Shown here one piece after another: positions 16,320 to 19,541 of a stretch of 23,030 bases of DNA. A model generated the notes under the pieces. The model saw only the letters and a list, made by a program, of their open reading frames with translations. It ran no database searches and was not told the origin of the DNA. Position 1 is the first letter of the stretch. Every line of letters starts with the position of its first letter. The stretch covers positions 1 through 23,030 of the forward strand of contig CABWZL010000012.1 in assembly GCA_902509805.1 (NCBI GenBank). Direction: 5' to 3'. A program made the position numbers and the translations under genes. This stretch comes from an uncultured Bacteroidota bacterium. Its GTDB lineage: Bacteria > Bacteroidota > Bacteroidia > Flavobacteriales > Flavobacteriaceae.

Positions 16320-16928
16320 ATGCAGTCTCCTATAAAAGTTTTTAGTGATTGGGTAATAAGTGGAAAAGATGAGGGTATGCAAAAAGGTCATTCTCCAGCT
16401 GTAAAAAACATGATTGAGTATTCAACTAAAGAATTAAATGATTATAGTTTTATAGATGCTGGGTGTGGTAATGGTTGGGTTATAAGAAATATAGGTTCAG
16501 ACCCTAAATGTAATAAAGCAATTGGAGTAGATGGTTCTTCTAATATGATTGAAAAAGCCAAAAAACTTGATAGAAAAAACCAATATTTCTGTACTGACCT
16601 GATGAATTGGAGTCCAAATAAAAAAGTTAATATAGTTCATTCAATGGAAGTCTTCTATTATTTTGAAAAACCTGATAAACTCATCCAACATGTCTATGAC
16701 AGCTGGATACTTGAAGGAGGAAGGCTAATAATGGGCATTGATTATTACCACGAAAATAAGCCTTCACATACGTGGAAAGAAGATTGCTGTATTACTACCA
16801 TGAAGATGTTTGAAAAAAATGATTGGGTAAGTTTTTTTAAAACAGCAGGTTTTAAAAATCTAGAATCATGGTGTCATGGAAAAGATGGTGAATGGAATGG
16901 TACTTTAATTGTTTCTGGAATCAAGTAG
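16320..16928 (+). CDS. Class I SAM-dependent methyltransferase
   Basis: A 202-residue Rossmann-fold methyltransferase. Motif I, FIDAGCGNGW, lies at 44-53 and the acidic ribose-binding motif AIGVDGSSNMIEKA at 67-80; the post-II segment VHSMEVFYYFEKP follows. The N-terminal part (VFSDWVISGKDEGMQKGHSPAVKNMI) recalls small uncharacterised methyltransferases rather than UbiE or rRNA enzymes. The substrate is unknown. It is the last gene of the 14114-16928 run, one base after the phosphatase. Its final 24 bases overlap the 3' end of the convergent FMN reductase gene, so both coding ends are constrained by the same DNA. Confidence 0.88.
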   Translation: MQSPIKVFSDWVISGKDEGMQKGHSPAVKNMIEYSTKELNDYSFIDAGCGNGWVIRNIGSDPKCNKAIGVDGSSNMIEKAKKLDRKNQYFCTDLMNWSPNKKVNIVHSMEVFYYFEKPDKLIQHVYDSWILEGGRLIMGIDYYHENKPSHTWKEDCCITTMKMFEKNDWVSFFKTAGFKNLESWCHGKDGEWNGTLIVSGIK

Positions 16929-17468
16929 CGCTATCCCTACTTGTTTTTTAAACTCTAAAATTTGTTTGTCAAGTTCCGTGTCTAATTTTTGATTGATAAT
17001 GCCTAATTCTTCAGAAAAATTTTCATAAAAACTTGGGAGAATAAAATGCGGAATATCAAAATTGCTTTGTCTTGAAAAACGAGGCAAGGCTGTTTCAAGT
17101 ACACTTTGTCCTCCGCGTGCACCATCACTTGTAGACATCAATAAAATAGGTTTATTACTCCAGACAATTTTTTCAATAACTGATATCCAGTCATAAATAT
17201 TTTTGAAGGCTGAAGTATACGATCCATTGTGTTCTGCTAGCGAGATAACTAAGCCTGAACAATCATTTACAATTTTCTTAAACTCTAGTGCTTTTTGTGG
17301 AACGCCCTCTTCAGAGTGCCTGTCTTCACTATAAATAGGCATTTCAAAGTCGTTAAGATCAAGAATAATTGCTTCTTGAGCAGTAATTTTATTTGCTACA
17401 AAAGAAGCAAGTCTCTTGTTAATGGAATTTTTTGAGGACGAGCCCCCAAAGGCTATAATTTTATTCAT
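16905..17468 (-). CDS. NAD(P)H-dependent FMN reductase, flavodoxin-like
   Basis: A 187-residue protein of the NADPH-dependent FMN reductase/azoreductase family (PF03358). The flavin phosphate loop is GGSSSKNSINKRLA at 8-21, the middle part has AEHNGSYTSAFKNIYDWIS at 78-96, where the flavin ring docks, and STSDGARGGQSVLE at 112-125 completes the site. It should transfer electrons from NAD(P)H through FMN to quinones, iron or another small acceptor in the cytoplasm. Its ATG shares a base with the stop of the upstream CDGSH gene (TAATG), so it is probably translated with it. It is the third gene of the yceI - CDGSH - reductase unit, which hints that the iron-sulfur peptide and the reductase may exchange electrons. 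Confidence 0.88.
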   Translation of the reverse strand: MNKIIAFGGSSSKNSINKRLASFVANKITAQEAIILDLNDFEMPIYSEDRHSEEGVPQKALEFKKIVNDCSGLVISLAEHNGSYTSAFKNIYDWISVIEKIVWSNKPILLMSTSDGARGGQSVLETALPRFSRQSNFDIPHFILPSFYENFSEELGIINQKLDTELDKQILEFKKQVGIALLDSRNN

Positions 17469-17551
17469 TATTTATTTAAATGTGATCCGTCACAGTATCC
17501 ATCAGGATTCTGTGTATTACCACATCCACATTTTGGTCTCTTTGAATTCAT
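17468..17551 (-). CDS. 27-residue CDGSH-type iron-sulfur peptide
   Basis: A very small gene missed by ordinary length cut-offs. The peptide starts MNSKRPKCGCGNTQNPD and ends GYCDGSHLNK. It contains the CDGSH motif: C8-x-C10, T13, P16, C20-D-G-S-H24. These three cysteines and one histidine are the [2Fe-2S] ligands in mitoNEET-type proteins. Compared with the usual C-x-C-x2-(S/T)-x3-P-x-C-D-G-(S/A/T)-H, the C10-C20 spacing is one residue longer. Outside the motif almost nothing remains, so it would have to bind its cluster as a dimer or with a partner. Position supports a real gene: it starts one base after the yceI stop, and its TAA overlaps the reductase ATG. Homologues are usually 40 to 80 residues. 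Function is unknown; an electron-transfer or cluster-sensing role is inference. Confidence 0.85.
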   Translation of the reverse strand: MNSKRPKCGCGNTQNPDGYCDGSHLNK

Positions 17552-17552
17552 A

Positions 17553-18164
17553 TTACAAGGTTTTTAAGTTTATTGCAAGTTCTATATCGTCGTAAATTAA
17601 TTTGTCACCAAGATTTTCAAAAAATGTTCCTGATCTAAACTTTACTTCATATTTAGATCTGTCAAAAACCAGATTTGCTTTCCATCCATCATTAGAATTT
17701 AACATTTCAAATTCAACTGGATGGGTAAAAGTTTTAATGGTTAACTCTCCTGAAACCATCCATTTACCTTCAGATACAGATTCTGAGCTAATGATTGATA
17801 GTAAAGCTGTCGGATGTGATTCAACAGAAAAGAAATCATCTGATTTTAAATGAGCTTCTAATCTTGGTCTGCGCTCTTCTGGTAAATCTTGATTATCAAT
17901 TGTTGTCATATCTACAACAAATTCACCGCCAGAAATCAAGCCACTCTTTACTTCAAATTGGCCAGAGGCAAAGTAAATATTACCAAAGTGTAAAGAAGTT
18001 GTGATTTCTCTTCCTGTCCACACAATTAAGCTTTTATCTGTATTTACAGTATATGTAGCATCTGAAGCTTGTTGAACAGTGTCTGTAGAAATCTCTGATT
18101 GACTTGTATTTAAATTACAAGAGGCAAGAGCAGTAAACATTAATAAAGCGAATATTTTTTTCAT
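17553..18164 (-). CDS. YceI-like lipoprotein
   Basis: Member of the YceI family, beta-barrel lipocalin-like proteins that bind isoprenoid or other hydrophobic ligands in the periplasm. The 203-residue protein has a lipoprotein signal with lipobox LASC (C16). The domain runs from ADATYTVNTDKSLIVWTGRE to the C-terminus and includes GGEFVVDMTTIDNQDL (79-94) and HLKSDDFFSVESHPTALLSI, both typical of the family. Many Bacteroidota encode several paralogues. It is the first gene of the operon with the CDGSH peptide and the FMN reductase, and diverges from the HTH regulator across an operator-rich region. A half-palindrome of the operator type lies 15 bases upstream of its ATG, so repression by that regulator is plausible. 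Confidence 0.9.
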   Translation of the reverse strand: MKKIFALLMFTALASCNLNTSQSEISTDTVQQASDATYTVNTDKSLIVWTGREITTSLHFGNIYFASGQFEVKSGLISGGEFVVDMTTIDNQDLPEERRPRLEAHLKSDDFFSVESHPTALLSIISSESVSEGKWMVSGELTIKTFTHPVEFEMLNSNDGWKANLVFDRSKYEVKFRSGTFFENLGDKLIYDDIELAINLKTL

Positions 18165-18280: not shown

Positions 18281-18397
18281 TGTAAAATAAACTATACATT
18301 TATAATGTAAAGTTAGTTTAACATTAATGTAAATTATTAAACAATGTAAAGTTTCTTTTACAAAATAATTTATTATATTTGTAAAGTTAATTTTACA
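18281..18397. promoter_or_regulatory. Cluster of TGTAAA-N6-TTTACA operators
   Basis: Four 18-base inverted repeats and one half-site. They lie at 18281-18298 (second half TATACA), 18306-18323 (second half TTAACA), 18345-18362 (perfect, spacer GTTTCT) and 18380-18397 (perfect, spacer GTTAAT). A lone half-site TGTAAA is at 18328-18333. The last copy ends one base before the regulator's ATG and overlaps its predicted promoter. This is the arrangement expected for autorepression by a small dimeric XRE-type protein. Rest of the 234-base gap: the palindrome at 18216 and no further gene. Confidence 0.75.
18374..18381 (+). promoter_or_regulatory. Predicted promoter -7 box for the HTH-Stealth operon
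   Basis: TATATTTG matches TANNTTTG exactly, 17 bases before the ATG. Its last two bases are the first two of the operator at 18380-18397, so a bound regulator would block it. A second perfect operator covers the -33 region (18345-18362). Confidence 0.6.
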
Positions 18398-18398
18398 T

Positions 18399-18593
18399 AT
18401 GCTGGTAAATAGAGTTAAAGATTTCAGAAAAGGCATCAATCTAACCCAAGAAGAACTTGCTGCCAGAGCAGGCGTAAGTAGGCAAACTATTATTTCGATT
18501 GAAAAAAATAAATTTGTGCCTGGTTTAGATGTTGCAATGAAAATATCAAAATCACTAAATACGCCTATTGATAAACTTTTTTATTTTGTTTAA
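18399..18593 (+). CDS. Small XRE/Cro-family transcriptional regulator
   Basis: A 64-residue protein consisting almost entirely of one helix-turn-helix domain of the XRE type. The scaffold is LTQEELAARAGV at 15-26 and the recognition helix SRQTIISIEKNKF at 27-39, followed by PGLDVAMKISKSLNTPIDKLFYF. It matches the short YgzD-like regulators that act as dimers and often repress their own gene. The ATG at 18399 lies right after a perfect operator. In many bacteria such a gene is followed by a membrane-protein gene; here its TAA is followed directly (no gap) by a Stealth-type transferase gene, which should therefore share its control. Confidence 0.93.
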   Translation: MLVNRVKDFRKGINLTQEELAARAGVSRQTIISIEKNKFVPGLDVAMKISKSLNTPIDKLFYFV

Positions 18594-19541
18594 ATGGAAA
18601 AAATAGACGCTGTCATAACCTGGGTTGATGGATTGGACCCTAAGTATCAACTAAAATACCAGAGCCTTCTTAAAAACCACGGTGATTTTAAAAAACAGTA
18701 TATGCAGGCTGACGAGATTGATTTTTGCGTCTTATCCATTATAAAAAATGCTCCTTTTATAAGAAAAATATTTATCGTAACTGATAGCCAATCTCCTGCC
18801 CTCGATGAAACAAAGAGGCTAGCATCGTTAGATAAGGTTGAAATTATAGACCACAAAGAAATTTTTTCTGGACTTGAAGGTTTTTTACCAACATTTAACA
18901 TTAGATCAATCGATGCTGTTCTATACAGAATAAAGGATCTTTCAGAAAAATTCATATACTTTAATGACGATATGTTTTTAATAAAAGAAAGCAATCCAGG
19001 CGACTGGTTCATAAACAACAATGCTGTTTTAACGGGAAACTGGGCCAAAACATATAATATTCAGCCGTTAAAGAAAATAGCAAAATTGCTCAAAAGAATT
19101 CTTAAAAGCAGACCTAGCTATAATCACGCGCAGTCAAAAGCAGCAAACATAGTCGGGTTTGATAAAAAATATTTCAAATCTTACCATAGCGGAAGGCCTC
19201 AGGTGAAATCTGTTATTAAAAAATTTTACGACAATAATCCTAAAATACTTAAAAGACAATTGAGCTATAAGTTTAGAAACGACAAGCAATATATGCCCTA
19301 CAGCCTTTGTTGGCATCTTTTAATTAAAGCGGAGCAATATGAAGCCGCAAACAAAAACAGGCTAATAGAGATTGAAAAAATACGGAATCTAGGGCCGGGA
19401 AAACTTAAAAAGATTTTGCTTGATATTGACCACAACACAAAAGCTCAGTTTTTAAATGTTCAAGATCTGAATTATGCCTCAAAAGAAACAGCTAAAGTTT
19501 TTAAAGATTGGCTAAGAAATAAACTAGCCGGAAAAAATTAG
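18594..19541 (+). CDS. Stealth-family hexose-phosphate transferase
   Basis: The 315-residue protein belongs to the Stealth family (capsular-polysaccharide phosphotransferases related to GlcNAc-1-phosphotransferase), which transfers sugar-1-phosphate from a nucleotide sugar to build phosphodiester-linked glycans. Region CR1 is DAVITWVDGLDP at 5-16. CR2 runs from FLPTFNIRSIDAVLYRI to the acidic FNDDMF (97-128), and CR3 includes NHAQSKAANIVGFDKKYF and YHSGRP near 177-202. No membrane segment or signal peptide is visible, as expected for a cytosolic surface-glycan enzyme. No other glycan genes are nearby, so its acceptor is unknown. The last 4 bases overlap the convergent aminotransferase gene. 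Confidence 0.9.
   Translation: MEKIDAVITWVDGLDPKYQLKYQSLLKNHGDFKKQYMQADEIDFCVLSIIKNAPFIRKIFIVTDSQSPALDETKRLASLDKVEIIDHKEIFSGLEGFLPTFNIRSIDAVLYRIKDLSEKFIYFNDDMFLIKESNPGDWFINNNAVLTGNWAKTYNIQPLKKIAKLLKRILKSRPSYNHAQSKAANIVGFDKKYFKSYHSGRPQVKSVIKKFYDNNPKILKRQLSYKFRNDKQYMPYSLCWHLLIKAEQYEAANKNRLIEIEKIRNLGPGKLKKILLDIDHNTKAQFLNVQDLNYASKETAKVFKDWLRNKLAGKN

What the first reader, a model, noticed from the sequence alone, without database searches (positions are those of the whole stretch)
17468..17551. A 27-residue CDGSH iron-sulfur peptide coupled between a YceI lipoprotein and an FMN reductase
The frame holds the three cysteines and one histidine of a CDGSH [2Fe-2S] site in a peptide with almost nothing else, well below the usual domain size. 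The gene starts one base after yceI and its stop overlaps the reductase start (TAATG), so all three are likely made together. A minimal cluster-binding peptide beside a flavin reductase suggests a small redox relay. The C10-C20 spacing is one residue longer than the family consensus, which may affect cluster binding.
Basis: partly seen in the sequence, partly recalled or inferred. Interest (0 to 1): 0.72.

Follow-up and report, generated by a model that had tools for sequence, protein, structure and literature searches.

The report
Tiny CDGSH metal-binding peptide family
A 27-residue peptide carrying the metal-gripping part of an iron-sulfur protein is a real, conserved gene in a flavobacterium-like bacterium, sits in a likely stress operon, and belongs to an overlooked family of very small peptides that also occurs in many uncultured phages.

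Summary
Window 17468-17551 (-) encodes MNSKRPKCGCGNTQNPDGYCDGSHLNK between a YceI lipoprotein and an FMN (quinone-type) reductase. Over 18 distinct operon copies pN/pS is 0.15, against 0.32 and 0.35 for its neighbours. The "one residue too long" spacing marks a separate mini-CDGSH group, C-x-C-G-x-[TS]-x4-G-x-C-D-G-[ST]-H: in the bacterial loci then held, 55 distinct DNAs have this nine-residue gap and 18 canonical ones have eight. Of 58 loci mapped, 24 have a separate YceI gene next to it, 11 have it fused to the YceI N-terminus (one with an in-frame stop), 6 carry it as the tail of a RicT-like PSP1 protein; 12 have none of the tested neighbours. An XRE gene with palindromic repeats (19 of 20 loci), HxlR and pirin recur. 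A viral-contig scan found 193 relatives; the 80 kept share the gap. No mini sequence scanned reached the Pfam cut-off. Best reading: a metal site, probably a labile [2Fe-2S], acting as redox partner or sensor in an electrophile/oxidative envelope-stress operon. Metal and electron transfer are unproven. A new variant of CDGSH, not a member of the seven published types.

The parts
17468..17551 (-). mini-CDGSH peptide, 27 aa, ligands C8, C10, C20, H24
   Evidence: conserved in relatives; pN/pS 0.153 over 18 distinct copies
17553..18164 (-). YceI-family lipoprotein (lipobox-like LASC read by eye)
   Evidence: PF04264 77.6 bits; sequence
16905..17468 (-). NAD(P)H-dependent FMN reductase of the YieF/chromate reductase/azoreductase kind
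   Evidence: PF03358 98.8 bits; profile of its family finds yieF 3svl, chromate reductases, azoreductases and a quinone reductase
18399..18593 (+). divergent 64-aa XRE-type regulator
   Evidence: HTH_3 55.8 bits; found on the opposite strand upstream of YceI in 19 of 57 other loci
18345..18362 (.). operator-like palindrome TGTAAA-N6-TTTACA
18380..18397 (.). operator-like palindrome TGTAAA-N6-TTTACA just before the XRE start
   Evidence: at least one perfect copy upstream of XRE in 19 of 20 loci incl. the window (not L099)

Best explanation
The peptide is a translated microprotein made of little more than a metal site held by three cysteines and one histidine. It belongs to a distinct mini-CDGSH group. 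Shown here by sequence: it is conserved, has a low pN/pS, and is co-encoded with a YceI protein and a flavin/quinone-type reductase, beside an XRE gene with palindromic repeats. The same motif is also fused to YceI and to RicT-like proteins. Inferred: that it is translated and that the site holds a labile [2Fe-2S] cluster. The operon answers quinone/electrophile or oxidative stress of the envelope. The peptide takes electrons from the FMN enzyme and passes them to a quinone or oxygen, as mitoNEET does in vitro with flavin reductase, or it senses redox state or iron for the same set of proteins.
For: Conservation and coupling. YceI link in two layouts (separate gene upstream 24, fused 11), 35 of 58 loci. 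YceI lies near the reductase in 10 of 13 loci with the peptide and 1 of 67 without (Fisher p 1.8e-9, related loci not corrected for). In L159 and L160 no ATG/GTG/TTG occurs in the 20 codons after the motif, so YceI is very probably made as a fusion there. HxlR in 17 of 58 and pirin in 12 of 58 loci. RicT-like fusion partners keep two C-x4-CC pairs; in B. subtilis RicT such cysteines hold a [4Fe-4S] cluster (PMC6751060, passages). hhalign of mini peptides against seven canonical CDGSH proteins: 96.3% probability over 21 columns, with a one-residue insertion. mitoNEET with flavin reductase and NADH moves electrons from FMNH2 to O2 or ubiquinone (PMC9490426, passages). YceI proteins bind isoprenoid quinones, and one protects against lipid peroxidation (PMC9113575, abstract and passages).
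Against: No cluster, metal or electron transfer was measured. The parts thought essential to CISD folds (Phi1, P11 in place, N-strand, P motif) are missing, and Lin 2011 argues that the module needs them. AlphaFold2 gives a 30-aa relative pLDDT 66.5 with no helix or strand of length, and 62-63 for the motif part of the fusion. Some copies lack a ligand: two of ten database peptides lack the His (P0127, P0128), one fused protein has R for the first Cys (P0132), and two loci have a stop inside the motif. YceI is exported while the peptide has no signal sequence, so direct contact with mature YceI is unlikely. Of 58 loci, 12 have none of the tested neighbours, and the phage copies sit in unrelated contexts.
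Confidence: 0.5

Rival explanations
1. The mini motif is a mononuclear Zn or Fe knuckle that mediates binding to a protein or nucleic acid, not a redox cluster.
For: Very small size; the beta-sandwich parts of CISDs are missing; copies in several unrelated phage proteins look like a general plug-in module; AlphaFold2 shows no fold without a metal.
Against: The CDG[ST]H end and the T of the motif are those of [2Fe-2S] CISDs. Many of its bacterial neighbours are redox proteins. One fusion partner is of an Fe-S protein family.
Confidence: 0.3
2. The ORF is a regulatory leader or coupling ORF whose translation matters, not its product.
For: Tight junctions: exactly one base after yceI in 16 of 18 distinct copies and a one-base TAATG overlap with the reductase in 15 of 18.
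Against: Codons vary while residues stay (differences by codon position 325/204/1219). The same motif is fused into YceI and PSP1 proteins and occurs in phages.
Confidence: 0.05
3. The peptide is a phage-derived gene kept for a phage-related role such as defence or superinfection control.
For: 193 confirmed viral-contig relatives. L184 encodes a peptide very close to that of bacterial locus L100.
Against: Stable synteny with YceI, reductase and XRE across relatives. No phage hallmark is apparent to me among the listed window ORFs (they were not scanned for phage families).
Confidence: 0.1

Closest known systems
CDGSH iron-sulfur domains (CISD types 1-7, Pfam PF09360; mitoNEET, MmCISD 3tbn)
   Same: C-x-C ... 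C-D-G-S-H with 3 Cys and 1 His, and a T at the (S/T)7 place; profile match 96.3% to canonical Bacteroidota CDGSH proteins; best PDB profile hit is 3tbn, not significant at E 0.31 (that 3tbn is the type 6 MmCISD is recalled)
   Different: Nine instead of eight residues between C2 and C3; the P11-Phi12 place is x-G-x; no N-strand, no P motif; free bacterial forms mostly 26-39 aa; below the Pfam cut-off
mitoNEET/flavin reductase/quinone electron transfer (PMC9490426, passages)
   Same: CDGSH site next to a flavin enzyme and quinone chemistry
   Different: Separate tiny peptide without signal sequence, bacterial operon, activity not tested
BcnA-LcoA YceI envelope antioxidant system (PMC9113575, abstract and passages)
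   Same: YceI lipocalin with a redox partner gene
   Different: Cytochrome b561 partner there; mini-CDGSH plus FMN reductase or pirin here
RicT/PSP1 [4Fe-4S] protein (PMC6751060, passages)
   Same: Six of 58 loci carry the mini motif as the C-terminal tail of a PSP1 protein; the three sequences printed keep the C-x4-CC pairs
   Different: The passages seen of the B. subtilis paper mention no CDGSH tail; role here unknown

Membership tests
CISD / PF09360 | Three Cys and one His as C-x-C ... C-x3-H | tested here: met
   window peptide; invariant in the 31 rows of A5, from which P0127 and P0128, lacking the His, had been left out
CISD / PF09360 | Motif spacing C-X-C-X8-C (consensus in Lin 2011) | tested here: not met
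   nine residues in all 55 distinct mini DNAs; the 18 canonical ones have eight
CISD / PF09360 | (S/T)7 | tested here: met
   T13 in the window; T invariant in A5
CISD / PF09360 | Phi1, P11, Phi12 | tested here: not met
   K precedes C8 and position 11 is not P; Y precedes C20 here but N in most fused forms
CISD / PF09360 | N-strand and P motif with lid proline | tested here: not met
   no GP-Phi-x-Phi and hardly room in 27 aa; no strand of length in the model of a relative
CISD / PF09360 | Pfam gathering score 29.5 bits | tested here: not met
   13.2 bits; P0124 12.9, P0122 18.1, P0130 no match
CISD / PF09360 | Binds [2Fe-2S], paired modules | not testable with these tools
   needs protein
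FMN_red PF03358 (reductase) | Pfam cut-off | tested here: met
   98.8 bits against 24
YceI PF04264 (lipoprotein) | Pfam cut-off | tested here: met
   77.6 bits against 23.7
SEC-C zinc motif (recalled) | Last two ligands adjacent (C-C or C-H) | tested here: not met
   C-x3-H here; definition recalled, from no call

The most novel reading that the evidence does not exclude
Mini-CDGSH peptides are a widespread, unannotated family of near-minimal [2Fe-2S] microproteins (about 25-40 aa) shared by Flavobacteriales-type bacteria and uncultured phages. They fold around one cluster without the beta-sandwich thought obligatory, and are used as plug-in redox modules: free, fused to the cytoplasmic end of membrane-anchored YceI, or as tails of RicT-like Fe-S proteins.
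Probability: 0.35. Interest if true: 0.85.

Novelty: new variant of a known kind. Interest (0 to 1): 0.68.

Why it matters
If the peptide binds [2Fe-2S], it would be among the smallest natural Fe-S proteins (a recalled comparison) and would contradict the view that the CDGSH module needs a beta-sandwich and pairing (Lin 2011). It links a CDGSH site to a flavin reductase and a YceI protein by gene order and by fusion, which makes the FMNH2-to-quinone role proposed for mitoNEET testable in bacteria. Frequent phage copies raise a new question about redox or metal microproteins in infection. Such peptides are easily missed by gene callers: a 40-aa query found only 10 predicted relatives in a database of 5.8 billion proteins, a lower bound because that search needs shared 5-residue words.

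Tried and rejected
Chance ORF: rejected. Separate genes rather than fusion in the CDGSH-YceI loci: very unlikely for L159 and L160, which have no ATG/GTG/TTG in the 20 codons after the motif; in the other 8 of 10 loci checked at least one such codon is there, so a second start cannot be excluded (G143 was not in that check). In-frame stops as recoding: most '1 TAA' flags are the ordinary stop after the motif. Two loci (L017, and G143 = L111/L131/L165) have a real TAA inside the motif, read as decay or assembly error. Structure: AlphaFold2 of a 30-aa relative gave nothing useful; PDB profile search not significant. Isolated phages: 0 matches for two peptides, only noise for a 108-aa viral protein. 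Plasmids: one weak Halorussus hit, E 2. Literature, open-access PMC only: CDGSH with YceI 0 papers; HxlR, quinone and pirin 0; CDGSH with phage 10, none relevant by the listing; CDGSH with Flavobacteri 2; CDGSH with small protein 11; CDGSH with molecular evolution 12. Of PMC5859297 I saw the abstract and one passage. Phyla other than that of G001 were not sampled in genomes.

Full report
Observation. The frame at 17468-17551 (-) is as described. YceI ends one base before it and the reductase ATG shares the last base of its stop, TAATG. Pfam confirms both neighbours. The peptide itself scores 13.2 bits against zf-CDGSH, far below the cut-off of 29.5. The nearest relative of the reductase that bears an organism name is 83% identical and from a Flavobacteriaceae MAG; no whole genome is held for the window.

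Conservation. In 12 an intact peptide of the same motif ends within two bases of the reductase start; a thirteenth, L017, has an in-frame stop inside the motif. YceI lies upstream in 10 of these 13 and is found in 1 of the other 67 (Fisher p 1.8e-9, relatedness not corrected, some flanks short). From 22 chosen loci 18 distinct copies remained. Over the 19 codons compared, peptide pN/pS is 0.153; the whole reductase gives 0.321 and YceI 0.346; differences by codon position in the peptide are 325/204/1219. Synonymous change is near saturation (pS about 0.6), so these ratios are rough. Exactly one base lies between yceI and the peptide in 16 of 18, and the one-base TAATG overlap is present in 15 of 18. 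Ligand losses exist: two of ten database peptides lack the His, one of five database fusions has R for the first Cys.

A distinct group. Over the loci then held (L001-L178 and the window), 55 distinct DNAs have nine residues between C2 and C3. They lie in free peptides, in YceI or PSP1 fusions, or in a few 41-90 aa frames. The 18 with eight residues are canonical motifs in frames of 80 aa or more; no other gap from 5 to 14 turned up. Mini peptides and seven canonical proteins align with a one-residue insertion, probability 96.3%: where canonical forms have P-Phi before the third cysteine, mini forms have x-G-x. By the published definition (Lin 2011, PMC3174974: introduction, conserved features, phylogenetic profile and discussion read) several defining features of CISDs are missing, so I do not file it under types 1-7.

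Distribution. These draws overlap. The split is mine and rough: a second mini copy in G001 scored only 2e-5 with A2; of the weaker hits whose locus I read most were canonical, while L117, L120 and L139 showed no motif by my pattern. Thirteen of 54 mini-bearing genomes also hold a PF09360 hit over its cut-off. Many records in this group are metagenome or other uncultured-cell assemblies by title, so absences are weak evidence.

Context. Further copies in G010, G013, G026, G758 and G766 were not counted. Separate YceI 24, fused YceI 11, reductase 23, XRE 20, HxlR 17, pirin 12, PSP1 tail 6, none of the tested neighbours 12 (many flanks are only 1.5 kb). In G028 and G016 (window-like operons; reductase 83% and 75% identical) an HxlR gene sits between XRE and YceI, joining the two kinds of locus. 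Pfam on one example each: HxlR 97 bits, pirin 114 bits, PSP1 99 bits, window XRE HTH_3 56 bits. At least one perfect TGTAAA-N6-TTTACA palindrome lies within 240 bases upstream of XRE in 19 of 20 loci, window included.

Fusions. The CDGSH part precedes a hydrophobic helix (27-51 in the model) and the YceI barrel. The barrel matches polyisoprenoid-binding 1wub and BcnA 5ixh. L159 and L160 have no ATG/GTG/TTG in the 20 codons after the motif, so YceI is very probably made as a fusion there; the other 8 of 10 checked have some possible second start. A sequence search also returned five fused proteins of 222-225 aa carrying only the YceI Pfam label. The three PSP1 fusions printed keep C-x4-CC twice, the pattern whose cysteines hold a [4Fe-4S] cluster in B. 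subtilis RicT (PMC6751060, passages).

Phages. A viral-contig scan with the mini alignment gave 193 confirmed relatives of 222 stretches, of which the best 80 were kept. All 80 have the nine-residue gap, 50 distinct DNAs; 48 lie in ORFs of 25-48 aa and 32 in ORFs of 82-122 aa. The tblastn ranking favours like spacing, so 80 of 80 is partly built in. The same kind of scan with canonical CDGSH gave 7 of 27; the two scans use different patterns. In 20 loci taken at even steps I scanned one large ORF each (the longest in 17): 15 matched PHROGs, two of these only families of unknown function, the rest including terminase, primase/helicase, UvsX, tail and head proteins and GroEL; 5 had no match. A further 10 proteins chosen by eye matched in 7. 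None was found among isolated phages.

Mechanism. Shown by sequence: a conserved peptide-coding gene, a redox/quinone-type neighbourhood, and fusion to YceI and to RicT-like proteins. Inferred: metal binding (likely), [2Fe-2S] (more likely than Zn), electron transfer from the flavin enzyme or redox sensing (open). The precedent is mitoNEET with flavin reductase and NADH (PMC9490426, passages) and YceI as an envelope antioxidant partner (PMC9113575, abstract and passages). The reductase family profile finds YieF, chromate reductases, azoreductases and a quinone reductase in the PDB, so it may act on quinones rather than free FMN. That HxlR regulators sense quinones or electrophiles and that pirins are iron-dependent redox proteins is recalled, from no call. 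Because YceI is exported, a link from the peptide to YceI would have to run through membrane quinone, or the peptide may act only with the reductase.

Verdict. A real feature and more interesting than first described. The redox relay is plausible, not shown.

Noticed in passing
L179-L258 (viral contigs): Mini-CDGSH peptides and modules in many uncultured phages, three of them on contigs with a phage GroEL gene (L179, L181, L243).
   Followed up: partly
L178:4955-6136, L135, L146, L152, L156, L158: Mini-CDGSH as the C-terminal tail of RicT-like PSP1 proteins upstream of a GldH-like gene (name recalled).
   Followed up: partly
L086:1453-1569: A second, separate mini-CDGSH ORF (38 aa from its first ATG) in G001, with like hits in G010, G013 and G026; context unknown.
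   Followed up: no
L017 near 4939; L165 near 6024: In-frame TAA inside the mini motif in two loci (one free peptide, one fused form); decay or assembly error.
   Followed up: no
window 18594-19541 +: Stealth-family (CR1/CR2) protein directly after the XRE gene.
   Followed up: no
window 18281-18397: Two perfect palindromes and, by eye, two imperfect ones of the TGTAAA/TTTACA kind between XRE and YceI.
   Followed up: partly
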